From Eudorina sp. 2006-703-Eu-15 (taxonomy: Eukaryota > Chlorophyta > Chlorophyceae > Chlamydomonadales > Volvocaceae): a stretch of 64,000 nt of DNA. The stretch is from the NCBI GenBank assembly GCA_003117195.1, contig BDSI01000025.1:1-64000 (forward strand), given 5' to 3'. Of the stretch, positions 1 through 25,330 are shown piece by piece. Both the position numbers and the translations under genes were made by a program. Within the stretch, counting starts at the first letter, position 1. Each line of letters begins with the position of its first letter. Below the pieces are notes generated by a model that was not told the DNA's origin, ran no database searches, and worked only from the letters and a program-made list of their open reading frames with translations.

Positions 1-318
1 TTTGGCATGTGCGCCGCATTCTTGCCAACTTTGCCGCCAACGGCGCCAGCGTCCAACGGGTCGCTGAGTTCCACGCCCACATTATGAATGGCACGCGTGG
101 CCTCACGGCGAAGACGAAGCAGCTACTCACCATCTCACTCCCGGTGCAGCGGCTCATATGCTTCAGGCGACGGCACGGCGTCGTGCAGCAGCATGGCATC
201 AGTCCTGAAGCGGCGACTTTGCCCCCAGGCGCAATGGATTCAACTGCTGGCTCGGCAAGCATGGAACACCAGCTGCACCGGGCGCGCGCCTGCTCGGAGC
301 TCTCGGCGCCGGATCTAA

Positions 319-939
319 ATTGCTGCGGACAGTTACCCTCTTCAGGGCCTTCTGAGCTGCGCTGCAAGTGCAGCCGACTGCACCATCGCAGCGCTGGAGG
401 GAGTGCTTGCGTCCACGCGAAAAACCAGCTTCTTCAGAGAAACAGCCATGAACGCGGAGCTTATGTCGCCTGCATGGAGGGCAGTGCTGACGGGCGGCAC
501 CGAATCGTCTACCGAGCAACTGTCTGGGACGGTCGGGCTTTGTGCTGCCCTTCGATTGGTGGCAGTGGCTCTAGGGAGGCTTGGTATTACAACTGTGTAC
601 CTAGTGGAGCCGTTCGAGGGCCTTGTGTGGGCCTACCCAACATTCCCGGGTTTCACTGTCCACATGCCACTAAGCAGCATGGCAGGGGCGCCGTCCGTCA
701 CCGTTCATGCCAACGGCTGCACCGCACCTGGCTTTCGGATGGTAATGGATGTGGACCCTCTACCTCGCGGCCTTAGCCATGGCTCGAGTGTCGTGCTTTG
801 GCATGAGAACGGGATCCTGTACCCAGTGGTCCGGCGTCTTGGGCGGGCGCCTGGTGTGCAGCACAACGGCGGGGCGGCACCATCCGGGAGAACGTGGTGG
901 ACGTTGAGCTTCGACGGGACAAACGGCGTCACTCAGTGA
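319..939 (+). other. Unidentified open reading frame, possible exon
   Basis: This frame stays open for about 206 codons, from just after a stop at 316-318 to a TGA at 937-939. The composition is protein-like, with mixed hydrophobic and polar segments and a stretch reading LVWAYPTFPGFTVHMPLSS near 622-680. I do not recognise a family. It lies directly upstream of a coding-type minisatellite and in the same direction as the recombinase-like gene, so it could be an N-terminal exon of that gene or an unrelated fragment. No start, splice site or promoter could be fixed. Confidence 0.25.
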
Positions 940-941
940 TA

Positions 942-1904
942 ACCGGAGGCGCTGGCCCTCAGCTTGGTGGGCAGCCGCCGCTGGCGCCTGGCGCCCTGGC
1001 GCTACACCCGGCATGCCGTCAGCGCCCAGAGGCGCTGGCCCTCAGCTTGGTGGCAGCCGCCGCTTGGCGGCCCTGGCGCTACACCCGGCATGCCGTCAGC
1101 GCCCGAGGCGCTGGCCCTCAGCTTGGTGGGCAGCCGCCGCTGGCGCCTGGCGGCCCTGGCGCTACACCGGCATGCCGTCAGCGCCCGGAGGCGCTGGCCC
1201 TCAGCTTGGTGGGCAGCCGCCGCTGGCGCCTGCGGCCCTGGCGCTACACCGGCATGCCGTCAGCGCCCAGAGGCGCTGGCCCAGCTTGGTGGCAGCCGCC
1301 GCTGGCGCCTGGCGGCCCTGGCGCTACACCCGGCATGCCGTCAGCGCCCGGAGGCGCTGGCCTCAGCTTGGTGGGCAGCCGCCGCTGGCGCCTGCGGCCC
1401 TGGCGCTACACCCGCATGCCGTCAGCGCTGGCCCTCAGCAGCCGCCGCTGGCGCCTGTGGCGCTACACCCGGCATGCCGTCAGCGCCGGAGGCGCTGGCC
1501 CTCAGCTTGGTGGGCAGCCGCCGCTGGCGCCTGGCGGCCCTGGCGCTACACCGGCATGCCGTCAGCGCCCAGAGGCGCTGGCCCTCAGCTTGGTGGCAGC
1601 CGCCGCTGGCGCCTGGCGCCCTGGCGCTACACCCGGCATGCTGTCAGCGCTGGCCCTCAGCTTGGTGGGCAGCCGCCGCTGGCGCCTGGCGGCCCTGGCG
1701 CTACACCGGCATGCCGTCAGCGCCCAGAGGCGCTGGCCCTCAGCTTGGTGGGCAGCCGCCGCTGGCGCCTGGCGGCCCTGGCGCTACACCCGGCATGCCG
1801 TCAGCGCCCGGAGGCGCTGGCCCTCAGCTTGGTGGGCAGCCGCCGCTGGCGCCTGGCGGCCCTGGCGCTACACCCGGCATGCCGTCAGCGCCCAGAGGCG
1901 CTTT
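942..1904 (+). repeat. GC-rich minisatellite, about 12 units of up to 84 bp
   Basis: The motif GCATGCCGTCAGCGC recurs at about 1011, 1088, 1170, 1252, 1333, 1414, 1472, 1554, 1636 (as GCATGCTG), 1709, 1793 and 1877. Spacings are 77, 82, 82, 81, 81, 58, 82, 82, 73, 84 and 84 bp. In the frame of the last two full units it encodes a 28-residue Gly/Pro-rich repeat containing GGAGPQLGGQPPLAPGG. That frame runs straight into the following exon at about 1,905. Most spacings are not multiples of three, so the array as a whole does not keep one frame. It probably began as a coding repeat and has decayed. Confidence 0.85.
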
Positions 1905-4900
1905 GCAGGGAGCACAGGATGATGGTGGCGATGACGAGGATCCGCGAGATGTGGCTCAGCGTTGGCTGGCTGAGGCGGCAGCCTACCTTGGCACAGTTGC
2001 TGGAATCCCTAGCACTCAGGATGTTACAGTGGGAAGGCGGCATGTGGGCAAACGACAGCGCCGCAAGGGGCGCCGTGGTGAGGAGGACAGCGATGAGTCC
2101 GCCAGCTGCAGTGACGCGTCTCCTGTCCGTGGCCCGGTCAAGTGTGCCAAGCCTGGGTCCACACCGGACACATCACCATCCGGAAAAACTCCCAAACGCA
2201 GGTACATGCTTGCTTGGATCATGTCATGCAATGTAGTACGATTATGCAACATCTTGTGCATGTGCTTTTAACTGCCTCGTTAAGGTCCCTGGTATCGCTT
2301 GTTGCAGGCGGCCAGCGGCCCCGCAGCCGCTCGTACTACCTCCTACGCTGTCACAACAGCCGCCATCTAGGCCGGAATCCGCGACACAGCCTTATCGCGC
2401 TGTTTCCCTACCAGCACGTAAAAACTGGCTGGGCTTTTCAGCCGCCAAAGTGAGTGTTGCGGAACTAATCCAACGTCATGCTAGCTGCCTTAGAGGAATT
2501 TAGCTTGCCTAATCCAGTCAAAGGGGACGACATGTCTTGACACTTGTATGCGGCCCCGCTTGTTTTCAATTCGTAGGGCACAGAAATTGACTGCGGCGCT
2601 GGCACGGTATAAGGAGCTGGATGAGCGGGCGACACGCAATGCTCGGGAGAATCTAGACCTGGCTGGAGCTCAGCAGCTCACGTGTCAGGTGTTGGGATCG
2701 ACTTCGCCAGTGTCAGCAGCGAGGCGCGCAACGCCTCTCAGCACCCATGGGCACAACGGTTCCGAACTCATGCCGTGGGGGCCGTGCTGACGAAGCTGCC
2801 GGGGTCAAGGGCACCTTTAGCCAGTACTACAACAGGTGCGTACTATGCCAGTGCCGGCTGTGCACCTCAGCATTGCGCCTAACCATTAATACTTTGTGCA
2901 AGTAGGGCCATGGACGCGATGAAGGACTTCAAGGAGTATGCGCCTGCGTACACCAGCACCGAGCGTGAGATTGAGGTTTACGGTGCTGGGCATTTCATTG
3001 CAACTCCTGGTCGGATATACACCTTCCTCGTGCGCTTACGTGCTGGGGTGGTTCAGCGGCTCAACTACGGCAGGACGCTTCAGGGACGACAGGGGTGACA
3101 ACTGCCGGTGATGAGAGTGGCGGAAGTGACATGGAGGCCCAGCCATCCTGCTCGGGTGCGTTACAGGGTTCCTCCACCTTGTTGAATTACAAATGCCTAT
3201 CACGGTTCCGGCATGGCATCTTAAAGCTTTTGGACACTTACTATGTCTTTCACCCTGTATACGCCTCAGGCTTGAGCTATGCGGCCTGTAGGGCGTGGGT
3301 AAACGCTCTGGGCTGGCTGCAGGAGACACAGCACTCCCTGATCACGGCAGCGCCTTGCCAGAGGATCTCTCCGTCCACAAGGATCCGACCGTTAAGGCGC
3401 TGCTGAAGGAGGTATAAGAGACCGAAAATCTACGCAACCATGGCAACAGGTGAGTTTCAGGGCTGGATCCTCGAAGCATTTAGGGTCTTTTTGGTGGGTC
3501 GGTTAGGTGGTTCGTTGGTTGGAACGAAGGGGCCGGATTGGGTGGGACGGGGTTTGATGACGCGGGAGGCTGGCATCCGTGGGGCAGCAATGCTAACAGG
3601 TCTTTGGTCCACGGCACCCAATCCGAACTGCACCACTCGTGCCGTCCTCAGGAAGGACATGGGGGTTCCATGCCGGAGCTACTACGGTGGAGCAGCTGAA
3701 GCGCCTGTCAGATTTCTGGGCTGGCCCGGACCGGAAGACTGAGGAGGCCGCCTGGCAAGGGTTCCGCTCAGCTTTCGAAACCTGCCTGCCCATGCAGAAC
3801 TTTGCACGGGGGTGCAGTGTGCGGGACCTGATGTACCACACCATGGCGTACTTCCCGTACGTGCCAATGACAAGTGCATGATTCCAGACGTCGACATGCC
3901 AGTTTGCGTCTTTGCGACCTCGGCGGCCAAGACTGGGGCGGGCAACGAGCTGTATCATCTGGTCGCCACGCGTGCCAAGGAGTGGCACAGGTGCCCGTGA
4001 TGTGGCTGGTGCTGCTGATCTACATGCAGCAGGAAGTGATTGGGGTCCACGTAGAGGTTACTGACACCGGTGCAAGCGAGACTGTGCGGGGCTGCGGACA
4101 TCCACCTGTCACCAGTGGCAAAGATGCCTACTACGACTGGATGGTAAGGGGATTGGTGTGTTATGTCTCAGTCTCCTGCCACTCACCCACCCACCTGCCC
4201 TGCCTGCCAATCGCCTAACCGCCACCCGTTGTCGCTTGCCCACTCAACCACAAGGCCTATAACGTTCTTGTACAAATTGTGGCGTCCCCTATTTATGCGC
4301 TTGTGATCTACCCTCCCCCTGCCCGCCGGCCGCACGCCCACCCTCGCTTGACCTCTTTCCAGCTGGTGAACAGCGGTGTGGTGACAAGTCGGCTCAGCAA
4401 GACCTAGCATCACAACGATGTGGCCCGTGCACACGAGGCCGCTGACATCCACGCTCAACAGGTGACGCACCTGTACCGCAAGATCGGACCCCTTTGGATG
4501 CGCACCAAGTACAGCACGGACAAGCAAGAGCTTCAGGACGTGGGCCTTTGGGAGTTGAAGGTGATGACCAAGTGTTACGCCATGCTACCAGGTGCTGGCG
4601 CACTGGCGAACATGGCCGACTTCATGGACGCGCCTCTTACTACACCCCACGCTCCGACCTCCACCCCGACCAATTCCCTGAGTTCTCGGAAGTGGTCGAG
4701 GACTCCCCCTTCCGTTGGGCGCACCATATGCTGGCCGAGCTGGTGAAGGTGAGCACCCATGCTTGCTTGTTGGCGGGGCAATGGGTATTGCTCCACAGCG
4801 CAGGAACACTTCACTACAATGTTCCTTCTCTGCTCGTTGCCCATGACAGAAAAACAAGTCCGCGAAGGAGGCAGACCGGGACCTGGCTGGTGAAAAGATG

Positions 4901-5542
4901 CTGCGCCTGTATGTGTCGGTCCTGGAGCCTGCTTTTTTCCAGGACCTGCCGTTCTTCCTTGAGGCGTACCCTGACAACCCGCTATGCAGGTGGGGTTGCG
5001 CGGGCCATCTTGCTGCTGTTGTTTTCCATTTGGACGCCTTGTTGAACATTTTGCCATTCCCTTGCTTTGTTCTCTTCATTCAGGACAACGTGGCTGCGGA
5101 AATGGGTCAACAGTGGCGTACTGCCCGGTGGTGCGCAATCCAGCTGGCGTACTGCAAGCACATGGACAGCTATACACAGCACTGCAAGCGGACCATGGGT
5201 TCGGACGGCGCCGCTGTCGCCATTCGGCGCCACCGGGACGAAGCAATGGCCAATGCGCGATCGGGTGTCATACTCCCCCGCGTGATGGTGTGTGAGGGCA
5301 AGGAGCCGACGTCGGCCGTGCTCGCTATGAAGGTGAGAAGTAAGGTATTTCTCAAACCTGGCACCCATTCCAGTCCCTGATAAGCAAATGACTCATCGTA
5401 GGTTAATAATCGTTCTTCGTCTGAGCGCCCACAGGCCGTCAAAGATTTCCATCAGGGACTGACTGCGTCAGCATTGAACCTCGCAACAAGCAGCTCTGGT
5501 GCCGGATCCTTGGATGCGAGGGCAGCGCGCACGAACGTGCAG
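1905..5542 (+). pseudogene. Crypton-like tyrosine recombinase (Ndc10-type core), frame-damaged
   Basis: The best splice model has exons ending at 2201, then 2308-2449, 2577-2835, 2906-about 3100, about 3260-3435, about 3640-4143, 4408-4748, 4850-4989, 5084-5332 and 5435-5542. The pieces follow the order expected of the Ndc10/Crypton catalytic fold. A helical core-binding part comes first (FSQYYNRAMDAMKDFKEY, spliced across 2835/2906). Next is the box-A arginine region (NFARGCSVRDLMYHT, about 3,800), then a lysine loop (ATSAAKTGAGNE) followed by EWHRCP (about 3,915-3,996). The HxxR motif THLYRK is at about 4,466, and GLWELKVMTKCY, which would carry the nucleophilic tyrosine, is at about 4,545-4,580. 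At least four single-base frame changes interrupt it (near 2,690, 3,350, 3,860, 3,995 and 4,630), so it is a decayed copy or carries assembly indels. The last exon is frame-compatible with the repeat exons that follow, so this is probably the first half of the gene ending at 8,530. Confidence 0.6.
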
Positions 5543-7222
5543 GTACGGCAGTGCGCCATGGGAACGTGCAGTATGGCGGCAGTGTAGCAGGTTCATGTGC
5601 TTGTCCACATCCATTCGTGTGCCTGGCTGCTGCGATGAAAGGGGCATGAGATTTGGGGGCAAACTGGTAACGTGCCAGTATAGCACCAGTACAGCAGCAG
5701 TACAATCCCAGCTCTGTGCTATGGGGGCCTCGGGTTTAAACAGTAGGCGGCAGGGTAGGGGGGTGCGGCTCGCCACACCATTGACACGTTGCCCCAAATC
5801 AAACCCAACCCTGCCCCGCTTTCCTCTCCGCCAATCACCCGACGCGTTAGGAGGGGGCTAACCCGCCGGCGGTTGTGGGCCTGGGCGGCGGCGGCTGCGG
5901 TGGCTGGCCAGTGGGCGGCGGCGGCGTGCAGGTCGCCCACATGCACGGCATGGCCAGCAGCCACGCGAGGGCAGCGCGCACGGACGTGCAGGTACGTCAG
6001 TGCGCCATGGGAACGTGCAGTATGGGGGCAGTACGGCGGCAGTATAGCAGGTTCATGCACTTGCCAAAGCCAAGTGGAACCCAACCCTGCCCCGCTTTCC
6101 CCCTCCGCCAATCACCCGACGCGTTAGGAGGGGGCTAACCCGCCGGCGGTTGTGGGCCTGGGCGGCGGCGGCTGCGGTGGCTGGCCAGTGGGCGGCGGCG
6201 GCGTGCAGGTCGCCCACATGCACGGCATGGCCAGCAGCCACGCGAGGGCACCGCGCACAGACGTGCAGGTACGGCAGTGCGGCATGGGAACATGCAGTAT
6301 GGCGGCAGTATAGCAGTATTTATGTGCTTGCACACCGCCATTCATCTGCCTGGCTGCTGCGATGAAAGGGGCAGGGGAGGTAGGGGCGAACTGGTAACGT
6401 GCCAGTATAGCACCAGTACAGCAGCAGTACAGTCCCAGCTCTGTGCTATGGGGGCCTCGGGTTTGAACAGTAGGGGGGTGCGGCTCGCCACACCATTGAC
6501 ACGTTGCCCCAAATCCAACCCAACCCTGCCCCGCTTTCCCCCTCCGCCAATCACCCGACGCTTAGGAGGACGGGGCTACCCCGCCGGCGGTTGTGGGCCT
6601 GGGCGGCGGCGGCTGCGGTGGCTGGCCAGTGGGCGGCGGCGGCGTGCAGGTCGCCCACATGCACGGCATGGCCAGCAGCCACGCGAGGGCAGCGCGCACG
6701 GACGTGCAGGTACGTCAGTGCGCCATGGGAACGTGCAGTATGGGGGCAGTACGGCGGCAGTATAGCAGGTTCATGCACTTGCCAAAGCCAAGTGGAACCC
6801 AACCCTGCCCCGCTTTCCCCCTCCGCCAATCACCCGACGCGTTAGGAGGGGGCTAACCCGCCGGCGGTTGTGGGCCTGGGCGGCGGCGGCTGCGGTGGCT
6901 GGCCAGTGGGCGGCGGCGGCGTGCAGGCCGCCCACATGCACGGCATGGCCAGCAGCCACGCGAGGGCAGCGCGCACGGACGTGCAGGTACGTCAGTGCGC
7001 CATGGGAACGTGCAGTATGGGGGCAGTATAGCAGTATTCATGTGCTTGCACACCGCCATTCGTCTGCCTGGCTGCTGCGATGAAAGGGGCAGGGGAGGTA
7101 GGGGCGAACTGGTAACTTGCTAGTATAGCTCCAGTATAGCAGCAGTACAGCTGCAGTTCAGCCGTTGCGGGCCATAGCCAATCTGACCCAACCTCGTTTC
7201 GGCTCCCCCCGGGAGCATGCAG
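5543..7222 (+). repeat. Tandem exon-intron array 1 (4 copies, 718-bp higher-order unit)
   Basis: Four copies of a phase-0 exon lie at 5851-5991, 6128-6268, 6566-6709 and 6846-6986 (141, 141, 144 and 141 bp). Each starts after a TTAG acceptor and ends at GACGTGCAG or a near match, followed by a GTACG donor. The third has one extra codon and stays in frame. The introns are 308, 136, 297, 136 and 236 bp. Long and short introns alternate, so the array repeats with a period of 718 bp. The encoded unit is Gly-rich in its first half and ends in a segment like ASSHARAARTDVQ. The exon before it (ending 5542) already ends in the same residues, so the array probably arose by tandem duplication of that exon edge. 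Confidence 0.75.
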
Positions 7223-8530
7223 GCCGGCGGCGGGGCCCGCGATCTTGGCGCCGTGACAGCAGGCCAGAGCCCCATCCGCAGCACCACAGCTGGTGTCGTG
7301 CAGGATTTGACTCCATACCGGGCTTCACTGATTCGAGCTCTTGTGCCCGTGGTGGAGCAGACCGTCTGCAGCCAGCTGCAGCAGCAGTTGCAGCAGCAGT
7401 TGCAGCTTCAGGTTCGCCCTCTGGTGCAGCAGTTTGATCGGCTTCGCGCCGAGCAGCTCAATACTGGGTTACAGCTCGCTGACGCACTAAACGCTGTGTC
7501 AAGGAGTGCAGCCGATGCTGCTAGTCTGGCGCAGACCGCTCTACTCGCGCGCACTTCCGGGTCTGGGGCCGCCCAGATTGCTCATGCAGAGGCGGACAAG
7601 GTGGGCTTCTTCGCTAAGCGGTCGCTGAAAGCGATGCGGCTACAACGTCGGCAGAGACTTCTTACCACTGCATTGAAGGAGGCCGCCGCTGACGTGACAC
7701 CTGGCGGGAATGGCAATGAGGCGCCTGGCGGGAGCGGAGCTAAAGCTAGGGAGCCCTCTCCACCTTCACTTTCTACACTTGTCGAGCAGCCACGGATTGC
7801 AATGGAGCCAGCCGCTTCAAGCACCATATGCTACCTCAGAGTTGTAGGCCGTGGCGCCGACGCCAAGGGGTGCGTCGTGGAGAAGCAGCTGTCGTTTCAC
7901 TTGGCGCCGGGGTGGGTCATCCCGAACGTCCTTGGCACGGGCCGTGATGGACCCGCTCATTCGCAGTGGACGGACTGGTCTGGCGAATTCAACCAACTGG
8001 ACAGTAAGTGCTTACGGGTCCGGGCCGGAAGTTGGAGTCTTAGATTCTACCAGAGGCAGCTTGTGTCCACCTGCCCTCGCTGATGCATATCCGCTGTTCA
8101 TGCCGACCACGCAGAGTATCGGTCTGTGGAGGATCTATGGCTCGAGTGGACGGAGGGGGTACTGCTGCCAAAGCGTGAGGGGCGACTAGCCCCACTCTGC
8201 GTCCTGGAGCACCCCGAGCTTCGGTCGGTATGGAGGAGCGGAAGGGAGATGATTAAAGAAATAAACTTCCGTAAGACTGTGATATACGCGCTGCATCGGC
8301 GCATTCATGGTCAACCGCTCAGCAAGGAGGCGGCTGCGGGCGCGGCTCAGATGCAGCACGAGGTCATGGACCTGGCAGCGGCGTGGTCTGATCTGCAGCG
8401 AGAGTATCAGCAGGGCGGCCAGGCGCAGCCGCCCAGCGTGAGCGTGCTGTCGCGCTCGATTCGTGAGTGGCAGCCGTCCAATTATGAGGAGTACGCCCAG
8501 CAGTCTGGGTTGCGCCTGTTCGGGTGCTAG
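5851..8530 (+). CDS. C-terminal half of the recombinase-like gene: repeat exons plus GCR1-C-like domain
   Basis: After the four repeat exons, the coding sequence continues in 7223-8003 and 8115-8530. The acceptor at 7222 is phase 0 and the 111-bp intron 8004-8114 is phase 1; both join in frame with no internal stop. The first long exon has a Gln-rich stretch (about 7,375-7,430) and a likely coiled coil. The last exon begins with YRSVEDLWLEWTEGV and continues through SVWRSGREM and ALHRRIHGQPL. I read this as a GCR1-C-type DNA-binding domain, which is known at the C terminus of CryptonF-type recombinases. Stop TAG is at 8528-8530. The order Ndc10-like core then GCR1-C fits one Crypton-family gene, although this half is intact and the first half is not. 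Other possibilities are a separate host gene using a co-opted domain. Confidence 0.55.
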
Positions 8531-8649
8531 CCTTGCGTGAGGTGCTGTTTGGTTTATGGGTGTCGGCTGTGGGGGCTAGCAGCTGAACTTAGAGTTGTCC
8601 ACTGGTTCATTTCTCTTTGAGTGGCGGCCCGTGGATGGCATGACGGGAG

Positions 8650-9973
<1,324 letters not shown>

Positions 9974-12900
9974 GAAATGCGTCACATACCTACACGGCCG
10001 GGTTAACGAATCCTGGGTGAAGTCGCGACAGCGGAGGAGAGGTATGTCAATAATACATCTGGGCGCATGACTGGTCGCAAGTGTGTCACCCCTGCCCGCG
10101 TGTAATCCTTGCCCTTGCCCTTGCCCGTGTTCGTACCTCTGCGACAGGCGAGAACCCGGACGCGCTAGGCCTTGTGAAAGCCCCTAAGAGGGCCCGGGTA
10201 TCGGTCGACGGGGCGGTTGAGGCCCTTTCAGCTGCCGAGCGAGCGACCAAAATGGCCCGTAGGGCGTTGGAGGCAAAAGACGCCACCAACCAGACGGAGC
10301 AGATTCATGCCGCTGCCGTTGCTCTGGCGGCAGCGTCAAATGTGCTATTCGCATCTGCCGGTTCACAACTCCACCCTGGTTCGGCTTCCCTCTTAGCCAA
10401 ACACCCGTCGAGCAAAGTGGCGGCTGCTCCGACGGGACACGGCACGGACCGTGCCGCCCAGTCCCCAGCAACCATTGCCAACGCTAACTGCATGGTCAGC
10501 GGCCAGGCGAGCGAAGCGCGCACGGACGTGCAGGTACGGCATTGCGACCTGGGAAACGTGCAGTATGGCGGCAGTATAGCAGGGTTCATGCGCATGGGCC
10601 AAAGCCAATCGGAACGCAACCCTTCCCCCCGCCTTCCCCCTCCGCCAATCACCTGACGCGTTAGGAGGCCGGGGCTACCCCGCCGGTGTTTGTGGGCCTG
10701 GGCGGCGGCGGCGGTGACTGGCCCTCGGGCGGCGGTGGCGTGCAGGTCGCCCACATGAACGGCATCGTCAGCGGCAAGGCGAGCGAAGCGCGCACGGACG
10801 TGCAGGTACGGCATTGCGACCTGGGAAACGTGCAGTATGGCGGCAGTATAGCAGGGTTCATGCGCATGGGCCAAAGCCAATCGGAACGCAACCCTTCCCC
10901 CCGCCTTCCCCCTCCGCCAATCACCTGACGCGTTAGGAGGCCGGGGCTACCCCGCCGGTGGTTGTGGGCCTGGGCGGCGGCGGCGGTGACTGGCCCTCGG
11001 GCGGCGGTGGCGCGCAGGTCGCCCACATGAACGGCATGGTCAGCGGCAAGGCGAGCGAAGCGCGCACGGACGTGCAGGTACGGCATTGCGACCTGGGAAA
11101 CGTGCAGTATGGCGGCAGTATAGCAGGGTTCATGCGCATGGGCCAAAGCCAATCGGAACGCAACCCTTCCCCCCGCCTTCCCCCTCCGCCAATCACCTGA
11201 CGCGTTAGGAGGCCGGGGCTACCCCGCCGGTGTTTGTGGGCCTGGGCGGCGGCGGCGGTGACTGGCCCTCGGGCGGCGGTGGCGCGCAGGTCGCCCACAT
11301 GAACGGCATGGTCAGCGGCCAGGCGAGCGAAGCGCGCACGGACGTGCAGGTACGGCATTGCGACCTGGGAAACGTGCAGTATGGCGGCAGTATAGCAGGG
11401 TTCATGCGCATGGGCCAAAGCCAATCGGAACGCAACCCTTCCCCCCGCCTTCCCCCTCCGCCAATCACCTGACGCGTTAGGAGGCCGGGGCTACCCCGCC
11501 GGTGTTTGTGGGCCTGGGCGGCGGCGGCGGTGACTGGCCCTCGGGCGGCGGTGGCGTGCAGGTCGCCCACATGAACGGCATCGTCAGCGGCAAGGCGAGC
11601 GAAGCGCGCACGGACGTGCAGGTACGGCATTGCGACCTGGGAAACGTGCAGTATGGCGGCAGTATAGCAGGGTTCATGCGCATGGGCCAAAGCCAATCGG
11701 AACGCAACCCTTCCCCCGCCTTCCCCCTCCGCCAATCACCTGACGCGTTAGGAGGCCGGGGCTACCCCGCCGGTGTTTGTGGGCCTGGGCCGCGGCGGCG
11801 GTGACTGGCCCTCGGGCGGCGGTGGCGCGCAGGTCGCCCACATGAACGGCATGGTCAGCGGCCAGGCGAGCGAAGCGCGCACGGACGTGCAGGTACGGCA
11901 TTGCGACCTGGGAAACGTGCAGTATGGCGGCAGTATAGCAGGGTTCATGCGCATGGGCCAAAGCCAATCGGAACGCAACCCTTCCCCCCGCCTTCCCCCT
12001 CCGCCAATCACCTGACGCGTTAGGAGGCCGGGGCTACCCCGCCGTTGGTTGTGGGCCTGGGCGGCGGCGGCGGTGACTGGCCCTCGGGCGGCGGTGGCGT
12101 GCAGGTCGCCCACATGAACGGCATGGTCAGCGGCCAGGCGAGCGAAGCGCGCACGGACGTGCAGGTACGGCATTGCGACCTGGGAAACGTGCAGTATGGC
12201 GGCAGTATAGCAGGGTTCATGCGCATGGGCCAAAGCCAATCGGAACGCAACCCTTCCCCGCCTTCCCCCTCCGCCAATCACCTGACGCGTTAGGAGGCCG
12301 GGGCTACCCCGCCGGTGTTTGTGGGCCTGGGCGGCGGCGGCGGTGACTGGCCCTCGGGCGGCGGTGGCGCGCAGGTCGCCCACATGAACGGCATGGTCAG
12401 CGGCAAGGCGAGCGAAGCGCGCACGGACGTGCAGGTACGGCATTGCGACCTGGGAAACGTGCAGTATGGCGGCAGTATAGCAGGGTTCATGCGCATGGGC
12501 CAAAGCCAATCGGAACGCAACCCTTCCCCCCGCCTTCCCCCTCCGCCAATCACCTGACGCGTTAGGAGGCCGGGGCTACCCCGCCGGTGGTTGTGGGCCT
12601 GGGCGGCGGCGGCGGTGACTGGCCCTCGGGCGGCGGTGGCGCGCAGGTCGCCCACAAGAACGGCATGGTCAGCGGCCAGGCGAGCGAAACGCGCACGGAC
12701 GTGCAGGTACGGCATTGCGACCTGGGAAACGTGCAGTATGGCGGCAGTATAGCAGGGTTCATGCGCATGGGCCAAAGCCAATCGGAACGCAACCCTTCCC
12801 CCCGCCTTCCCCCTCCGCCAATCACCTGACGCGTTAGGAGGCCGGGGCTACCCCGCCGGTGGTTGTGGGCCTGGGCGGCGGCGGCGGTGACTGGCCCTCG

Positions 12901-15900
12901 GGCGGCGGTGGCGCGCAGGTCGCCCACAAGAACGGCATGGTCAGCGGCCAGGCGAGCGAAGCGCGCACGGACGTGCAGGTACGGCATTGCGACCTGGGAA
13001 ACGTGCAGTATGGCGGCAGTATAGCAGGGTTCATGCGCATGGGCCAAAGCCAATCGGAACGCAATCCTTCCCCGCCTTCCCCCTCCGCCAATCACCTGAC
13101 GCGTTAGGAGGCCGGGGCTACCCCGCCGGTGGTTGTGGGCCTGGGCGGCGGCGGCGGTGACTGGCCCTCGGGCGGCGGTGGCGCGCAGGTCGCCCACATG
13201 AACGGCATGGTCAGCGGCCAGGCGAGCGAAGCGCGCACGGACGTGCAGGTACGGCATTGCGACCTGGGAAACGTGCAGTATGGCGGTAGTATAGCAGGGT
13301 TCATGCGCATGGGCCAAAGCCAATCGGAACGCAACCCTTCCCCCCGCCTTCCCCCTCCGCCAATCACCTGACGCGTTAGGAGGCCGGGGCTACCCCGCCG
13401 GTGGTTGTGGGCCTGGGCGGCGGCGGCGGTGACTGGCCCTCGGGCGGCGGTGGCGTGCAGGTCGCCCACATGAACGGCATGGTCAGCGGCCAGGCGAGCG
13501 AAGCGCGCATGGACGTGCAGGTACGGCATTGCGACCTGGGAAACGTGCAGTATGGCGGCAGTATAGCAGGGTTCATGCGCATGGGCCAAAGCCAATCGGA
13601 ACGCAACCCTTCCCCCGCCTTCCCCTCCGCCAATCACCTGACGCGTTAGGAGGCCGGGGCTACCCCGCCGGTGTTTGTGGGCCTGGGCGGCGGCGGCGGT
13701 GACTGGCCCTCGGGCGGCGGTGGCGTGCAGGTCGCCCACATGAACGGCATGGTCAGCGGCAAGGCGAGCGAAGCGCGCACGGACGTGCAGGTACGGCATT
13801 GCGACCTGGGAAACGTGCAGTATGGCGGCAGTATAGCAGGGTTCATGCGCATGGGCCAAAGCCAATCGGAACGCAACCCTTCCCCCGCCTTCCCCCTCCG
13901 CCAATCACCTGACGCGTTAGGAGGCCGGGGCTACCCCGCCGGTGGTTGTGGGCCTGGGCGGCGGCGGCGGTGACTGGCCCTCGGGCGGCGGTGGCGCGCA
14001 GGTCGCCCACAAGAACGGCATGGTCAGCGGCCAGGCGAGCGAAGCGCGCACGGACGTGCAGGTACGGCATTGCGACCTGGGAAACGTGCAGTATGGCGGC
14101 AGTATAGCAGGGTTCATGCGCATGGGCCAAAGCCAATCGGAACGCAACCCTTCCCCCGCCTTCCCCCTCCGCCAATCACCTGACGCGTTAGGAGGCCGGG
14201 GCTACCCCGCCGGTGGTTGTGGGCCTGGGCGGCGGCGGCGGTGACTGGCCCTCGGGCGGCGGTGGCGCGCAGGTCGCCCACAAGAACGGCATGGTCAGCG
14301 GCCAGGCGAGCGAAGCGCGCACGGACGTGCAGGTACGGCATTGCGACCTGGGAAACGTGCAGTATGGCGGCAGTGTAGCAGGTTCATGCGCATGGGCCAA
14401 AGCCAATCGGAACGCAACCCTTCCCCCGCCTTCCCCTCCGCCAATCACCTGACGCGTTAGGAGGCCGGGGCTACCCCGCCGGTGGTTGTGGGCCTGAACG
14501 GCGGCGGCGGTGACTGGCCCTCGGGCGGCGGTGGCGTGCAGGTCGCCCACATGAACGGCATGGTCAGCGGCCAGGCGAGCGAAGCGCGCACGGACGTGCA
14601 GGTACGGCATTGCGACCTGGGAACGTGCAGTATGGCGGCAGTATAGCAGGGTTCATGCGCATGGGCCAAAGCCAATCGGAACGCAACCCTTCCCCGCCTT
14701 CCCCCTCCGCCAATCACCTGACGCGTTAGGAGGCCGGGGCTACCCCGCCGGTGGTTGTGGGCCTGAACGGCGGCGGCGGTGACTGGCCCTCGGGCGGCGG
14801 TGGCGTGCAGGTCGCCCACATGAACGGCATGGTCAGCGGCCAGGCGAGCGAAGCGCGCACGGACGTGCAGGTACGGCATTGCGACCTGGGAACGTGCAGT
14901 ATGGCGGCAGTATAGCAGGGTTCATGCGCATGGGCCAAAGCCAATCGGAACGCAACCCTTCCCCGCCTTCCCCCTCCGCCAATCACCTGACGCGTTAGGA
15001 GGCCGGGGCTACCCCGCCGGTGGTTGTGGGCCCCAACGGCGGCGGCGGTGACTGGCCCTCGGGCGGCGGTGGCGTGCAGGTCGCCCACATGAACGGCATC
15101 GTCAGCGGCCAGGCGAGCGAAGCGCGCACGAACGTGCAGGTACGGCATTGCGACCTGGGAACGTGCAGTATGGCGGCAGTGTAGCAGGTTCATGCGCATG
15201 GGCCAAAGCCAATCGGAACGCAACCCTTCCCCCCGCCTTCCCCCTCCGCCAATCACCTGACGCGTTAGGAGGCCGGGGCTACCCCGCCGTTGGTTGTGGG
15301 ACTGGGCGGCGGCGGCGGTGACTGGCCCTCGGGCGGCGGTGGCGTGCAGGTCGCCCACATGAACGGCATGGTCAGCGGCCAGGCGAGCGAAGCGCGCACG
15401 GACGTGCAGGTACGGCATTGCGACCTGGGAACGTGCAGTATGGCGGCAGTATAGCAGGGTTCATGCGCATGGGCCAAAGCCAATCGGAACGCAACCCTTC
15501 CCCGCCTTCCCCCTCCGCCAATCACCTGACGCGTTAGGAGGCCGGGGCTACCCCGCCGGTGGTTGTGGGCCCCAACGGCGGCGGCGGTGACTGGCCCTCG
15601 GGCGGCGGTGGCGTGCAGGTCGCCCACATGAACGGCATCGTCAGCGGCCAGGCGAGCGAAGCGCGCACGAACGTGCAGGTACGGCATTGCGACCTGGGAA
15701 CGTGCCGTATGGCGGCAGTATAGCAGGGTTCATGTGCTTGCACACCGCCATTCGTGTGCCTGGCTGCTGCGATGAAAGGGGCAGGGTAGGTAGGGTTTGG
15801 GAACGTGTATAGCACCAGTATAGCAGCAGTATTACCCCATTGCGGGCCATAGCCGATTGGAAAGGGCTAGCCGGCCCGCCATAACCTAATCCCGTTGCCC

Positions 15901-17076
15901 CAATCGAAAATCAACTATGTCCCGCTTCCCCCCTTCGTCACACAACTGATGACGGCTGACACCGCATCCCTAGGGCGATGTGGACGTGCTCAGCAGGCTT
16001 CGTGATCCCAGCGGTGTTGTACGGCTCCCTGCCAGCGGGAAGACGGCGGATATGCTCATTGCTGCGGCCTACCAGCGGATGGGGGGTGAGCGTTGCTTTT
16101 TGACTATTGGTATTGCCCTGGCACTGATGAAGTGTAGTTGCACTTTGCAGAAACGGCCGCGCCCGTTGAAATCCAACCAACCGCCAAGGCCGTCGCAGCC
16201 GCACACATGAAATGGACATCTGCGGAGGTATGCTAAGGGAACCCCCGCCGCTTGCGAGCACACAACAGGTGAAAACCGATGTGAGTTTACCCCTTGCTTA
16301 CCACACATCCAGAACCTGGCGGGCGGCGGTAACAATGGAGGGGACGGCCTATACGGCACGCTGACCAACAAGGGTACCTCCATCGTCTTCGCGCTTCTTA
16401 TCCTTCTCACTGGCATGTGCTCGGTCAGTGTTTTAGTGGACCCCGGCGCGGGCCTCGGGAGGGCGCTGGTACACGCCGCTCTGCTTGGCTTGCAGTACGC
16501 CTGGGGCTTCGAGCTGGATGCTGGCAGGACCTACGATGCCATGGGGATATACCGCCAGGTTTTATACTCTTCCTTCTTGGAAAGTCATGGTAAGGAGGGG
16601 GGCCGCACATAGCTGCAAGCGTGGCGATTCCTGACAGGTGTACTTGAATCCCGCAGGGGAAGATGCCGCTGACTATGTGGCTTCCAAGTGGCCGGTTATA
16701 CAGCACGCATCGGTTGCTCAGATGCCGCTCGATTGCCTGGATGGCACAACGCACCTTTACACCTTCTGGGAGGGTTGGAACCCTGGCGACCGCAAGGAGC
16801 TCGCGGCCAGGGTGAACGCAAGCAGGCAACTCAAGGTTCGTGTTGCACACATGCCTTATACTTGGTCTTGCGCTCTGCGCTCTGCGTCCATCTGAACCAC
16901 ACTCCATGTGCGTACAGGGCCTCGCCATCGTGCAGCGCGGTAGAACCAACATGGGGACGGAAATGGCAGCGGCTGGCTTCCGCGACCTGGAACTGGTTGC
17001 AGTATGCACAGGCGTCGCCATGTCGGGCGGCAGCCACTTTACCGCTTACATCTACAAGCGGCTACTGCCTGTGTAG
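9974..17076 (+). CDS. Repeat-exon protein with C-terminal SAM-dependent methyltransferase domain (5' end unresolved)
   Basis: Supported exons are about 9974-10041, 10148-10533, nineteen 141-bp exons (10665 to 15678), 15974-16085, 16151-16227, 16313-16558, 16638-16835 and 16918-17076. Every junction matches in phase and there is no internal stop. Counted from the codon split by the intron at 10042-10147, they give 1,286 codons including the stop. The N-terminal part has a basic, nuclear-signal-like KAPKRARV and an Ala-rich helical stretch. The C terminus has class I methyltransferase features: motif I VLVDPGAGLGRALVHAALLG, acidic strand GFELDAG, a motif-IV-like HLYTFWEGW, and a closing SGGSHFTAYIYKR. 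The glycine loop followed by an acidic GFEL resembles the DOT1/class I fold, but the substrate (DNA, RNA or protein) cannot be told. A TGTAA signal is at 17,562. Unlike the neighbouring recombinase, this gene is intact, so it may be expressed. Confidence 0.65.
10534..15973 (+). repeat. Tandem exon-intron array 2 (19 exons of exactly 141 bp)
   Basis: Nineteen units of 269-272 bp are present. Exons start at 10665, 10937, 11209, 11481, 11752, 12024, 12294, 12566, 12838, 13108, 13380, 13650, 13921, 14192, 14461, 14730, 14999, 15269 and 15538. Each is 141 bp (47 codons), phase 0 on both sides, free of stops, preceded by a C-rich tract ending GACGCGTTAG and followed by GTACGG. Introns are 128-131 bp, except the last (15679-15973, 295 bp). 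All length variation lies in the introns; exon differences are substitutions only. The translated unit starts EAGATPP, passes through a Gly-rich centre with GGDWPSGGGG, and ends with ASEARTDVQ or a near match. The exon before the array (ending 10533) ends in the same residues. The last intron shares a segment (about 15,735-15,830) with the long introns of array 1. Confidence 0.85.
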
Positions 17077-20000
17077 CTGCTGACCGTGTAGCGGTTGCGT
17101 GCGTGCGGCTGTATGGGTTGGTGGGTGTAGAACGTCCGTTCCACAACACCCTGGATGTCACGCAAGCTGGGGACGGGGAGAAGGGGAGGCCTATCTGCCC
17201 CATGGGTCGGCTCAAAGACACAGGGTGTATGGTTCAGTGAAGTCCGGTTGCACGGGGGCACATAGTGTACGCTGGCTTAAGCCTTTAAATGAGGTGTTTC
17301 CAGAGCTCCACATCACGCCCATCGAGATCACGCCCATGGAGATTGAGATTTCGAGTGGTGTCTTTCATTCGATTAGACGTAAAGTCTGTCATTCTGCGTT
17401 GTTGACAGAGGCTTCTGGGATGGGCTAAGGCTTGGTTCAATGTTTTGCGGCGAGATAGTCGAGTCGTCATTTGCCTCCTCGAGTTTGTCGCGCCTGAAAG
17501 TTATGGCATTGGGCATTCCTAAACAATTAAGAAGAACGTCAGATATTTGTTTCTCCAGCTCTGTAAGCTCGCCGTTGACGTTGACTCTTCATCAGGGTCG
17601 GAGCGACGATGGACAAAATTGGCCAGCTCCATGAACTGCACGTCTCAGTTGGGCCATTCTAATACAAGTAAACATAAGCTTTTCATAGAGTTAATTATTG
17701 GCCGTAGTGTAGGGGTCCCGGACAGGGGTCTCGAGGGGTCTCACCCCCATAGATAACTACTGATATTGAACGCCGCTGTGCTCGTATGAAAAGCGGTTCT
17801 CCATGGCTCCATGAAATGGAGACTTCATCTGGCGCTGTGGTCCATTAACAGGAGCCGGCTGGTAGTACGCATTAGAACCCGTCAAAGCTTTTCCTACTGG
17901 TTTTGTAAGAAGCACTGAGCCTGTAGATGTGCGGCGTGGTATCACACCCGCCTGGTACATGGCGGGACTCGTAAAGTTGCGCTGATGCCCTGTCCCTCAA
18001 ATGGTATGGACTTTATAAAAGATAATCCAAGGGCTACACCAAGCGATGTGCCTTCACACGTGTCGCATGTACCCTAGTCCATGGAAGGTTGTGGTGGTGC
18101 AGGGCGAATCCGCGCGGTAGGGTATACCAAGAAATGTAACACAACAGGTACCCTAAATTTTTCGCGCGTAAAAGCCGCCAAAAGGATCGCTAGACGTCTA
18201 CTCCTGCGTCATAACAACGACGTATGGAGACATAGTTGTTGCAGCTGTCGTCATGAAGTTAGTTGACGGTCGACCGTTCGACCAAAGAGCGGAAGAGTAA
18301 TATCGAGATGCGGAAGTAAGCAGCGGAAGACTTGTATTTGTTGACGGAGATATAAGCTGGATACGTGGCCCTGCTGCGGACACTGAAGTCGAAGTCCAAC
18401 AGGGTACTGTGAAGATGCGGGAGCGTCGGAACTTGTAACAGGGGCGGAAGCGTTAGCAATATTTATGATATTTGGAATATGATAGGGCCGATAGACCGGC
18501 AGAAACGGAAGGGTCGCAGGTAACCAGGCACGATGGCCACGGGCTCGCGCGCGGACCCAAGCTGGCGCGCTCGCACGGTGGACTCCACTGAGTGGGGGTA
18601 CTTCTGAGGATGTTATGGACTTATCGGATTACTGGCGAGGGATGGCTGGGTCTGTTGGGCTGCGCCACCGGGTGCTCGACGTTGGAGTCGTAGGCGGGCG
18701 GCTGCAGGGAGTACGGGCTGTGCGCCCGAGAGAGAACGAAGGCCGGAAACAGGAGAAGGGCACGGCCGAGACGATAGGAGACGCACTTGGACTTGCAATG
18801 CGGAGACAGGCTGCCGCCACACGCGGACTTAGGCCGCGCGGGAGACAGAGCGCCTGTACAGAAGACCGCACGCTAGTTCAGAGACAGTGAGCAGTAAGCG
18901 CTCGTCAGCATCAAGTCGCTGGTATACGCCGGGTAAAACTGCTGACCAGCTCTGGCAGCGGGTGGCCTTTTATACTAGTCCCGAGGACCGGCACTTGCCA
19001 GCACCTCCAAGTCCACCTTCTGCACAAATGCCATCGAGTACCTAAGCTTCCACGCCTTCCCACTGATCCACACGGCGCCCGTAAGCCACCTTCCAGGCCA
19101 GACCGTCGGCTTCCAGCTGCCGGGGACTGCCATGTCAGGCCGGGTAACCGACACCCCGAGTAACCGCACGGGGAATACCGCTAGGCGTGGCAGCTATGGC
19201 TCGACCACCAATAGAATATCAACCGAACCGCAGCCCCAATAGAAGGCTGACTTGAACGAATGGCACCGAAAGCCAAGATAAACCTCCAGCTGGCGCCCAT
19301 AGCTGGCGCAATCGCATTCCATTGGCTCCGGTGCGGGTTCCGACCCGCTGTAACGAGTTCGTACCAACGAAACTTCCCGAAAGCCGTCAATTGTCAGCAT
19401 TATTATGATAGTTTCTTGTTATTTGTTTGTTCAATGTCATTTTTACGATGTTTTGCGAAAGTTGAGAAGAAATGTTTAGAACCCACGGAATGTCGACACC
19501 GACCATCACGGAAATGTATTGAAGATGACCCAGATCGAAACGGCCGTGAAGAACCACATACTGTATGTGCAATGTTTTTTGATTAAGAAGAGAAAACAAG
19601 GCATGCGAGAAACGAACATTCACTGTCCATAGGTTTGGCGTCCATGCGCTGAACCCGCGACACCCACAGTCCAAACAAAACGAAAAGTGATGGGAATGAA
19701 AATATAAAAGCTGGTGCGCAGACGACAGGAGGACGACACCACTGGGTTGTGTTGGCCATCGGCCGTGGATAAGTATGTCCAGGTCCTCAGCGACGTCTGA
19801 ATTGCGAAAAACAATCTCTAGTATAATCTTCACTGTGAAAATGTGAGATTTAGGGTTGACGCAGTGCTGTGGTACCGGCGTTGCTGATTTCCCGTTTTCC
19901 GCCGACCCAGACGCTCCGGCTGTGACTGTATATATCAGCATAACCATATGAGTTTCAAAACCTGTTTCAATCTTTCATTCCTGTGAGCGGCAGGCTTCCG

Positions 20001-21278: not shown

Positions 21279-22952
21279 TCAGCGGACGCCCATGGAGTAA
21301 ATGCACTTCGAAAAATCGGGGTACGGCAGCGGCTTCGTGAGGACGTCCGCCACCATATCCTTCGACTTGCAATAGCGAAACTTAATCTCTCCCCGTGCCG
21401 CACGCTCGCGAATAAAATGATGCAGCACATCGATGTGCTTTGACCTGGCGGTTGTGATCAGGTTACTGATCATCTTCAGCGCCGCCTGGTTATCGCAGCT
21501 AATCGGCACGCTAGGAACACGCAGCTTCAAATCGCGCGCTAAGTGACGAAACCACAACGCCTCCTTGGTTGCAGCACCACTCGACATGTATTCAGCCTCA
21601 GCCGTTGACGTGGCCACTGTGGCCTGCAGCCGACTTGCCCAGCTAACAGCTCCACCGGCAATCATGAAGACGTAACCGGTGGTGGACCGCCTTGTGTCCA
21701 CACAGCCCGCATAATCGGAATCACAGTACCCGTGAAGAGCACCCACACTCGACTTCCCATCAAAGACAATGCCCATGCTTTTGGTACCAAGTAGATACCG
21801 CAGCACACCTTTGGCCGCATGCCAGTGCTCGACCGTGGGCTTAGACATGTACCTAGACAAAGCTCCCACGGAGTATGAAATATCGGGCCTCGTGCCCACC
21901 GACAAATACAGCAGGCTACCCACCAGCTCACCGTACGGAAACTGCTGTACGTCCAGTCTGTTACCTTCCGCACGTAGCGCCTTTGACAGTGGCACCTTGC
22001 GCGGATTGGCTTCCTTCAGGCCGTACTTCTCAATCAGCTCCGACACGAACCGCTTCTGAGTAAGCTTCAAGGTGCGTTCAGCCCGATTACGTTCGATCTC
22101 GTAACCGAGGAACACCCGAGCCTCTCCCATATCCCTGATGTCGAACGCCGACATCAATCGCTTCTTGACAGCACTCACCGTCTCCAGAGATTTCGAAGAA
22201 ACTAGGAGATCATCAACATATACCAACACATAGGTACGCTCCCCCTTCACATCTCTGTAAAACAGGCCTGGATCAGCCTGTGACACACGGAAACCCATCT
22301 GCTCTAGTTCTTCCCGCAACCGAGCATACCACACATGAGGGGCTTGTTTCAGCCCGTACAACGACTTGTGAAGCTTGCACACCTTCCGTGGATTTCCCTC
22401 TGCATATCCCGGCGGTTGGAGAACATATACCTCCTCCTCCAGGATACCATTTAGGAACGCCGTTTTCACATCCATTTGATGCAATTCTAGATCAGCAGCC
22501 GAAACTAGAGCCATAAGTGCACGGAGGGTAGCGTGTTTGCTCACCGGAGCAAAAACCTCCTCAAAATCGCGTCCCTCCACTTGCGCAAAACCCTTGGCAA
22601 CCAAACGGGCCTTGTAACGAACAATTTCCCCGTTCTCATCACGCTTGATCATATACACCCACTTCACTGGCAGAGCACGCACCCCTTTCGGCAACTCCTC
22701 CAAAGTCCACACCTGATTCGCACGCAAGGACAAAATTTCCTCGTCCATGGCTTGTTTCCACATTTGAGCTGCCGGCGAACTCATAGCCTCCTCGAGGGTC
22801 CTGGGCACTGAGGGTTCTCCTTCCGGAACAACCGCTAGGTTCAGCCGTTCCTTGGCCTTGCCCCGATTTGGACGGGCAGACCTCTCCAAAACAGGCGTGG
22901 CCTCCGGGCTCGGTCCAGGACCAGGTCCAGAGCTGTAACACAGCGCGGCCAA
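21279..22952 (-). pseudogene. Copia pol, 3' part: reverse transcriptase and RNase H
   Basis: The open frame covers about 550 codons. Reverse transcriptase motifs are NQVWTLEELPKG (start of domain), KARLVAKGFAQ, HQMDVKTAFLNG, LYGLKQAPHVWY and the catalytic YVDD (near 22,212). RNase H motifs are CDSDYAGC, TSTAEAEYM and SKHIDVLHHFIRE, ending DVLTKPLP close to the stop. This part is intact, but it was separated from the upstream frame by the TRIM insertion and a nearby frame change. The first residues of the frame (from 22,952) are read from TRIM sequence and are not native. Confidence 0.95.
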
Positions 22953-23014
22953 AGGCTTCTCGAGATGCTGTGCAGGGTCATTGTTAGGGACTTATACTGT
23001 AACCCAGCGTTACA
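22934..23014 (-). repeat. TRIM 3' LTR (81 bp)
   Basis: Left-hand repeat on the plus strand, bounded by TGTAAC and GTTACA, which are inverted copies of each other. Confidence 0.85.
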
Positions 23015-23264
23015 TTCTCCCCCCCCTGAAGGGAACGTCCTCGTTCCTCACTGCGTCCTCGCAGTGCACAGTCCACTCCGCCATTCCTCCCCCACCACGA
23101 GGTTGGCCAGGCCTCGCGTCACGTCATGCGGCGACACCCGGACCATCTCCGGCACATGCGTCCCTAGCAGGGTTTTTGGAGTGGAAACCTTTGCGCGCCC
23201 GTCCAGAATCGAACTCACGACCGGACGAGGTCGTACGGAAAGAGTACTGATACTCGATACCAAT

Positions 23265-23345
23265 TGTAACACAGCGCGGCCAAAGGCTTCTCGAGATGCT
23301 GTGCAGGGTCATTGTTAGGGACTTATACTGTAACCCAGCGTGACA
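23265..23345 (-). repeat. TRIM 5' LTR (81 bp)
   Basis: Right-hand repeat on the plus strand; 80 of 81 bases match the other copy. The single difference is in the terminal GTGACA versus GTTACA. Confidence 0.85.
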
Positions 23346-25089: not shown

Positions 25090-25330
25090 CGTTCACGTCC
25101 TCCAACAATTTCCCGTTGACGTCTCCCCATGGCAGATCCACCTCCAATGGGTTTGCCTCGTACTTCTTGATGCATACAGCCTCGTACATCGCCACACCAA
25201 GCGACCAGACGTCCAGGCCGAGCTCGCCGGTGCTCTGATCCTGTGGGATGGTCGTGATTCCGACAGCATGGGCCATTTGGAGCAGCTTCTCCACACTCGA
25301 CCCCCAGTCGGACACCTCAGCTCCACGTGC
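25090..25330 (-). other. Protein-kinase-like fragment inside Copia gag-pol
   Basis: Between the zinc knuckles and the protease, the reading frame contains ELGLDVWSLGVAMYEAV (about 25,176-25,225). This matches subdomain IX of eukaryotic protein kinases (D-x-W-S-x-G-V, with a following Y-E). The surrounding 80 residues read as a short kinase C-lobe piece with no catalytic loop or ATP site. Copia elements do not normally carry this, so I infer capture of a host exon. A chance match is possible because only the D-x-W-S-x-G core is diagnostic. Confidence 0.5.

What the first reader, a model, noticed from the sequence alone, without database searches (positions are those of the whole stretch)
10534..15973. 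Nineteen tandem, length-invariant 141-bp phase-0 exons in one gene
Each 269-272 bp unit contains an acceptor (TTAG after a C-rich tract), a 47-codon open exon and a GTACGG donor. All 19 exons are exactly 141 bp and stop-free, while the 19 introns preceding them take lengths of 128, 129, 130 and 131 bp. A noncoding satellite should gain indels evenly, so this pattern suggests the array is spliced and translated into about 893 residues of repeats ahead of a methyltransferase domain. I know of no described green-algal gene with this layout. The array could also allow variable repeat number by exon skipping, since every exon is phase-symmetric.
Basis: partly seen in the sequence, partly recalled or inferred. 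Interest (0 to 1): 0.93.

Follow-up and report, generated by a model that had tools for sequence, protein, structure and literature searches.

The report
Exon arrays in an algal transposon
A mobile DNA element present in many copies in what appears to be a green-algal genome carries, inside two of its genes, strings of near-identical exon-plus-intron units that look spliced and translated, so that the protein could grow or shrink in steps of 47 amino acids without losing its reading frame.

Summary
In detail: 19 of 19 exon-like stretches in window 10665-15678 are 141 bp and open in one frame; introns before them are 128-131 bp. The coding reading is well supported, though without RNA. A 27-exon model (start codon not fixed) runs through the array to the C-terminal domain with consistent phases. 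Codon statistics favour the same frame (0 of 5000 shuffles). On seven contigs of at least 160 kb, 54 of 55 exons are multiples of 3; intron lengths are not. A second gene of the element, ending in a GCR1_C domain, carries a diverged array of the same exon. Copies hold from 2 complete exons to about 96. The 47 residues show no purifying selection. Against: 36 of 71 listed exons in the largest array, left out of the 55, are shortened; a same-locus control suggests assembly error but does not prove it. The methyltransferase label is sub-threshold. Verdict: probably a spliced coding VNTR in a mobile element, a new variant of a known kind.

The parts
1..17757 (+). Part of the mobile element held in the window (about 675 bp of its 5' end lie outside, because the window starts at base 1 of contig C25)
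   Evidence: copies share sequence up to window 17757 and then show 11 different right flanks among 21 places; left ends
943..1902 (+). 83-84-bp minisatellite in the region of the first long ORF; in another copy (L023) an 84-bp (28-aa) unit, 18.9 copies, inside a stop-to-stop frame of 1005 aa
5543..7222 (+). Array 1 in gene 1: exons 5851-5991, 6128-6268, 6566-6709 (144 bp) and 6846-6986; introns of 308, 136, 297, 136 and 236 bp
   Evidence: exons and splice sites; sequence
7223..8527 (+). Gene 1, 3' exons (7223-8002, 8114-8527) with stop; GCR1_C match at 8114-8341
9195..10533 (+). Gene 2, upstream exons 9195-9635 (from the preceding stop; start codon not fixed), 9843-10041, 10148-10533; the last 48 bp resemble the end of the repeat exon
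10534..15973 (+). Array 2: 19 exons of 141 bp (10665-15678) and 20 introns; the last intron, 15679-15973, resembles the long introns of array 1
15974..17076 (+). Gene 2, 3' exons 15974-16085, 16151-16227, 16313-16589, 16657-16835, 16918-17076 (stop): possible methyltransferase-like domain
17740..17757 (+). 3' terminus of the element (CTCACCCCCATAGATAAC)

Best explanation
The array is a spliced, coding VNTR in the second gene of a mobile element of about 18 kb. Each unit of about 270 bp carries one whole phase-0 exon (47 codons) and its own intron with donor GTACGG and acceptor TTAG. Adding or losing units therefore changes the protein by 47 residues and leaves the frame intact. Shown from sequence: unit structure, phases, codon signal, multi-copy mobile context, a second array in gene 1, and copy-number differences between element copies. 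Inferred: splicing and translation; expansion by unequal exchange or slippage; that the repeats form a flexible glycine-rich spacer before the C-terminal domain; that selection keeps the frame (to avoid cutting off that domain) but not the amino-acid sequence.
For:: 3 upstream exons + 19 + 5 downstream give 1503 codons with one stop, the last; the array exons and the first downstream exon are all entered in phase 0; log-odds of exon frame 0 is +0.21 against -0.25 and -0.39 in the other forward frames; 0 of 5000 shuffles as high; the intron part is negative in all six frames; on nine loci of seven contigs of at least 160 kb (C46 left out), 54 of 55 exons are multiples of 3 (53 of 141, 1 of 144, 1 of 140 bp), while 43 introns fall 19/14/10 over the three residues; an array 1 and an array 2 exon differ by gaps of 3 and 3 bp only, their introns by gaps of 1, 2 and 11 bp, at similar substitution levels (14 of 138 and 12 of 125); the C-terminal exons of a 95% copy show dN/dS 0.33, so that part was under constraint; the exon stays 141 bp next to introns of 136 and about 295 bp in gene 1.
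Against: No RNA or peptide evidence. The repeat shows no purifying selection: dN exceeds dS in all 9 array 1 versus array 2 pairs. In the C46 array 36 of 71 listed exons are 138-140 bp; over the 168 units, 49 are frame-broken or hold a stop. One search makes assembly error likely but does not prove it for C46. One of 55 exons on the chosen contigs is frame-broken, and the 95% copy on C2 has a 1-bp deletion in a C-terminal exon. The antisense strand of the exon also scores positive in one frame (+0.14). The acceptor is TTAG, with a CTGAC whose A lies only 8 bases before the intron end (sequence; its role as branch point is recalled). No protein with the repeats was found among 8000 scored candidates. 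Copies share descent, so counts overstate the evidence.
Confidence: 0.68

Rival explanations
1. Non-translated satellite inside one large intron: the array is skipped (10533 joined to 15974), and the exon-like features are relics of an ancestral exon kept uniform by recent amplification.
For: The flanking exons are both phase 0 at the array, so skipping also keeps the frame. The amino-acid sequence is unconstrained. Exon substitutions are about as frequent as intron substitutions between arrays and more frequent within array 2. About 96 units in C46 would be a very long insert in a protein.
Against: Indels in multiples of 3 in exon parts only, between the two arrays and on seven contigs; codon signal in both arrays; the GTACG donor and TTAG acceptor kept in both arrays although intron lengths differ more than twofold.
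Confidence: 0.22
2. Cis-acting DNA array: the units are binding sites for an element-encoded DNA-binding protein (GCR1_C), selected as DNA, and the coding appearance is incidental.
For: GCR1_C in gene 1; arrays in both genes; the unit intron varies less than the exon within array 2.
Against: Does not predict codon bias, phase continuity or 3-bp indels restricted to the exon part. Binding was not tested.
Confidence: 0.06
3. Decaying pseudogene array: it was coding once but is now dead in most copies, including the largest array.
For: Short exons in C46 and the small contigs; copies that lack much of gene 1 or whose last exon is fused out of the downstream frame.
Against: The window copy is open over 27 exons. 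C634, which is the same locus (0 substitutions in 5266 non-array bp), shows 85 deletions in array 2, so short exons can be assembly error. C46 units carry few exon substitutions (23 in 37 units, against 42 in 18 in the window), unlike decay.
Confidence: 0.04

Closest known systems
Human LPA KIV-2 VNTR (PMC11201333, passages seen)
   Same: Tandem units that contain whole exons plus introns; copy number varies (up to 40 per allele); large share of the coding sequence; near-identical units
   Different: KIV-2 units are about 5.6 kb with two exons per kringle domain, in a host gene. Here the units are about 270 bp with one exon coding a glycine-rich stretch, in two genes of a multi-copy mobile element
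Tandem-exon genes with many phase-matched exons (titin, nebulin, collagen; recalled, from no call)
   Same: Many equal, phase-matched exons
   Different: Those exons are, as recalled, old and diverged. Here full units on the listed contigs are 93-100% alike in DNA and their number differs between element copies
Crypton transposons, CryptonF group (PMC3212892, passages seen)
   Same: GCR1_C domain towards the C-end of an element protein; no target-site duplication found
   Different: No tyrosine recombinase domain detected in this element; exon arrays are not mentioned in the passages seen. Element size was not compared
Transposons with internal tandem repeats that seed satellites, such as Tetris (PMC4079207, search listing and start of abstract only)
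   Same: Tandem repeats inside a mobile element
   Different: Here the repeat coincides with an exon-intron unit and keeps a reading frame; whether Tetris repeats are coding was not checked

Membership tests
Coding VNTR of exon-intron units (LPA KIV-2 type) | Repeat unit contains complete exon(s) with splice sites | tested here: met
   (splice sites by sequence, not by RNA)
Coding VNTR of exon-intron units (LPA KIV-2 type) | Exons phase-symmetric and in frame with both neighbours | tested here: met
Coding VNTR of exon-intron units (LPA KIV-2 type) | Copy number varies | tested here: met
   Between element copies: 2 complete array 2 exons in C1409, C26 and C952, 4 in each of two C113 copies, 19 in the window, about 96 in C46. 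Variation between individuals not tested
Coding VNTR of exon-intron units (LPA KIV-2 type) | Spliced and translated | not testable with these tools
   No RNA or peptide data; only statistics
Non-coding satellite | Indels independent of a reading frame | tested here: not met
   54 of 55 exons multiple of 3 on the seven contigs used. But searches show many short exons on other contigs, judged to be largely assembly error
Crypton (CryptonF) | Tyrosine recombinase domain | tested here: inconclusive
   NDC10_II profile: three sub-threshold matches in the genome, none in this element. Pfam scans of ORF pieces found none; introns may hide it
Crypton (CryptonF) | GCR1_C DNA-binding domain | tested here: met
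   26.9 bits for the ORF 8084-8527 and 23.2 for the joined exons, cut-off 23; in the six-frame genome search the window's match scored 21.9, below the cut-off. So met, but barely
Crypton (CryptonF) | No target-site duplication; short terminal direct repeats | tested here: inconclusive
   No duplication of 2-14 bp in 4 of 4 loci (for one locus the left flank comes from C634). Right end TAAC, left flanks TANC in 7 of the 8 printed (two of these share one flank); too few for a target rule
Class-I methyltransferase | Significant match to a methyltransferase family | tested here: inconclusive
   DUF6094 E 0.023, 13.9 bits against cut-off 22.8; best solved structure E 0.24, a putative methylase; no NCBIfam match over cut-off

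The most novel reading that the evidence does not exclude
An exon-intron unit acts as a self-contained growing module inside a mobile element. It was copied between two genes of the element, expands from 2 to about 96 units without breaking either protein, and its coding positions diversify faster than its introns, giving a transposon protein of freely variable length and sequence (for example to vary a spacer or to escape recognition by the host).
Probability: 0.25. Interest if true: 0.78.

Novelty: new variant of a known kind. Interest (0 to 1): 0.55.

Why it matters
It would show that an exon with its own splice sites can behave like a VNTR without frame cost, and that mobile elements can carry and spread such units. 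Many near-identical arrays of different sizes in one genome give a natural dose series for asking how many tandem exons a spliceosome and a protein tolerate. It also warns that assemblies of long reads can lose bases in such arrays.

Tried and rejected
Rejected: (1) That length invariance in the window alone proves coding. The window's intron indels lie in short base runs, so I looked at other copies. (2) Purifying selection on the repeat: absent, dN exceeds dS in all 9 array 1 versus array 2 pairs. (3) A firm claim of positive selection. Nonsynonymous against synonymous-plus-intron variants gave p 0.001 on 40 units and 0.008 on 170, but nonsynonymous against synonymous alone gave p 0.10, 0.12, 0.46 and 0.16 in four counts, and copies are related. 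(4) Taking short exons in C634, C771, C379, C516 and C46 at face value. C634 against the window showed 0 substitutions and 14 indels in 5266 non-array bases but 85 deletions, 11 insertions and 5 substitutions in array 2, at similar rates in exons and introns, so it looks like an error-rich duplicate of the same locus; the window was taken as correct there. (5) Filing the element as a Crypton: the recombinase was not found.

Led nowhere: protein searches with the repeat-containing protein and with the gene 1 C-terminus found nothing among 8000 scored candidates each. The search with the C-terminal domain found one Pleodorina starrii protein, which joins the element's first ORF to the end of the C-terminal domain and has no repeats. 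Paper searches listed 20 of 32, 12 of 1134, 12 of 112, 1 of 1 and 8 of 22 papers; no title or abstract start in those listings describes exon arrays in an algal transposon. That is no proof of absence. The structure job on one repeat (12-row alignment) gave a low-confidence model, mean pLDDT 54.8, with no secondary structure assigned because DSSP gave nothing: compatible with disorder, not evidence for it.
Full report
OBSERVATION. Tandem Repeats Finder gives one array at 10486-15734, period 272, 19.4 copies. Between acceptor TTAG and donor GTACGG, 19 of 19 stretches are 141 bp and open in frame 0. The preceding introns are 131 (8), 130 (3), 129 (4) and 128 (4) bp. Over the 19 units, 15 exon columns vary by substitution and none by indel; the four intron columns with gaps lie at A3, G3 and the C-run. 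The argument from indels alone is weak in one young array.

CONTEXT. The array is not unique. A 541-bp piece has 159 matches, listed on 14 contigs. A 746-bp piece of the 3' gene has 37 matches: 21 places at 89-100% over most of the query, 5 partial places at 95-97%, and 11 rows at 69-78%. The 5' end and gene 1's 3' part have 32 and 24 matches. Copies align up to window 17757 and then differ: 11 different right flanks among 21 places. Left ends begin AGTAACATACG in the eight loci printed; three tandem copies lack about the first 20 bases. The element thus starts about 675 bp before the window's first base, which is base 1 of contig C25, and is about 18.4 kb here. No target duplication was found in 4 of 4 loci. 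Eight of the 20 other right ends share one flank, and on C381, C516 and C771 two copies lie in tandem with a spacer of about 1.6 kb. In one search the region 3001-5500 is matched over most of its length only by C634; the other loci compared lack most or all of it.

GENES. Gene 2 was modelled by hand from splice sites: 9195-9635 (from the preceding stop; start codon not fixed), 9843-10041, 10148-10533, 19 repeat exons, 15974-16085, 16151-16227, 16313-16589, 16657-16835, 16918-17076: 27 exons, 1503 codons with the stop, no internal stop; the array exons and the exon after them are entered in phase 0. The C-terminal part matches DUF6094, a methyltransferase family, at E 0.023, below the cut-off, so 'methyltransferase' is a lead. 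That part has many relatives in this genome, for example 59-74% protein identity in the first matched exon on C66, C98, C203, C86, C682 and C1608. Against a 95% copy on C2 its exons give dN/dS 0.33 (15 synonymous and 15 nonsynonymous differences; one 3-bp insertion and one 1-bp deletion in exons, many indels outside). Gene 1 ends at 8527. Its last exon matches GCR1_C: 26.9 bits for the ORF, 23.2 for the joined exons, 21.9 in the six-frame search, cut-off 23. GCR1_C matches 20 places in the genome, 16 of them in copies of this element. A CBF3/Ndc10-type recombinase profile found nothing in this element.

SECOND ARRAY. Gene 1 carries four full copies of the same exon (5851-5991, 6128-6268, 6566-6709, 6846-6986; 141, 141, 144, 141 bp), with introns of 308, 136, 297, 136 and 236 bp. 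One exon pair between the arrays differs by 14 substitutions in 138 and gaps of 3 and 3 bp; a short-intron pair by 12 in 125 and gaps of 1, 2 and 11 bp. The last intron of gene 2 resembles the long introns of gene 1, so the short intron may be a derived form that was amplified (inference). In both genes the exon before the array ends like the repeat exon.

CODING TESTS. Codon log-odds trained on non-array exons of the two genes: frame 0 of the array 2 exon +0.21, the other forward frames -0.25 and -0.39, one antisense frame +0.14; 0 of 5000 first-order shuffles reached +0.21 in any of six frames; GC at codon positions 81/60/89%; the intron part is negative in all six frames. The training set includes 48 bp of the upstream exon that resemble the repeat. 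On contigs of at least 160 kb (C25, C113, C193, C26, C164, C116, C47; nine loci) 54 of 55 exons are multiples of 3, one is 140; 43 introns fall 19/14/10 by length modulo 3. Copies share descent, so the Fisher value of 3e-10 is not a true probability. Left out of this count: C46, also large, in which 35 of 71 listed exons are 141 bp, 26 are 140, 7 are 139 and 3 are 138; C2, whose fetched locus holds no complete unit; and the contigs under 160 kb. Over the 168 units that one pattern found in the loci scanned, 114 are 141 bp and 49 are frame-broken or hold a stop.

WHY SHORT EXONS MAY BE ERRORS. Contig C634 repeats the window's locus: 0 substitutions and 14 indels in 5266 non-array bases, but 85 deletions, 11 insertions and 5 substitutions in array 2: 49 deletions in 2679 exon bases, 36 in 2514 intron bases. 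So this assembly drops bases in the array, in exons about as readily as in introns. C46 units carry fewer exon substitutions than the window (23 in 37 units against 42 in 18) but 33 exon indel bases against 0, which is unlike decay. This is an argument, not proof. The assembly (181.2 Mb, 3033 contigs) is close in size to a female Eudorina assembly of PacBio RS II reads (184.0 Mb, 3180 contigs; PMC6123790, passages seen), and the only protein relative found is from Pleodorina starrii. The host is probably a volvocine alga; its identity is not established.

SELECTION ON THE REPEAT. dN exceeds dS in all 9 array 1 versus array 2 pairs (dN 0.126-0.209, dS 0.055-0.103). Among 40 array 2 units in eight loci on large contigs, distinct variants are 18 nonsynonymous of 104 sites, 2 synonymous of 37 and 6 intronic of 130 (p 0.001 for nonsynonymous against the rest); over 170 units the counts are 21, 5 and 9. 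Nonsynonymous against synonymous alone is not significant (p 0.10-0.46). So the frame is kept and the residues are free or diversifying. A model of one repeat has low confidence (mean pLDDT 54.8, no secondary structure assigned), and Pfam has no match for an array 1 exon read on into its intron.

COPY NUMBER. Complete array 2 exons: 2 in C1409, C26 and C952, 4 in each of two C113 copies, 7 in C193, 19 in the window, about 96 in C46 (58 listed before 524500, plus 38 acceptors in L049). In the short copies on C1409, C26, C952 and C113, and in C46, the last acceptor leads into an exon fused to downstream sequence in a different frame.

MECHANISM. Most likely a spliced coding VNTR: units with their own splice sites multiply by unequal exchange or slippage (inferred), and each adds 47 residues to a glycine-rich, probably disordered spacer (inferred). 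Frame is selected because a slip would cut off the C-terminal domain (inferred). The main rival is a skipped satellite in one large intron; both keep the frame, and RNA would separate them.

NOVELTY. The layout resembles LPA KIV-2 (PMC11201333, passages), where units of about 5.6 kb with two exons repeat up to 40 times. New here are the small unit, the residence in two genes of a multi-copy mobile element, and the range of sizes in one genome. My paper searches listed nothing like it; their listings are partial, and subscription papers and Repbase reports are not covered.

Noticed in passing
window 943-1902; L023 2873-4461: A third tandem array in the element: 84-bp (28-aa, Gly/Pro-rich) minisatellite in the first ORF; 18.9 copies inside a stop-to-stop frame of 1005 aa in L023; in the window, near the contig end, periods of 83-84 with 6-7% indels.
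   Followed up: partly
C634 (L009, L010) against window 3764-15740: C634 looks like a redundant, error-rich assembly of the window's own locus and also holds the element's 5' end that the window lacks.
   Followed up: yes
L018-L019 (C381), L022-L024 (C516), L025-L026 (C771): Element copies lie head to tail with a shared spacer of about 1.6 kb: a macrosatellite built from a mobile element and its flank. C379, C718, C594, C2075 and C476 share the same right flank or left truncation.
   Followed up: partly
P0001 (Pleodorina starrii hypothetical protein): 343-aa protein that joins the element's first ORF to the end of the C-terminal domain: probably an internally deleted relative of the element in another volvocine alga.
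   Followed up: partly
G000 C35:370567-370716: A single repeat-exon match of 138 bp (one codon shorter), the only one listed on that contig; its sequence could not be fetched.
   Followed up: no
G000 C121, C173, C1541, C912: Another GCR1_C protein family with stronger matches (about 30 bits); on C121, C173 and C1541 a sub-threshold NDC10_II match lies 2-3 kb away: candidate Crypton-like elements.
   Followed up: no
window 21279-26434 (minus strand): Copia-type retrotransposon ORFs (gag, integrase, RVT_2) downstream of the element.
   Followed up: no
window 50965-52542: ORF with ankyrin repeats.
   Followed up: no
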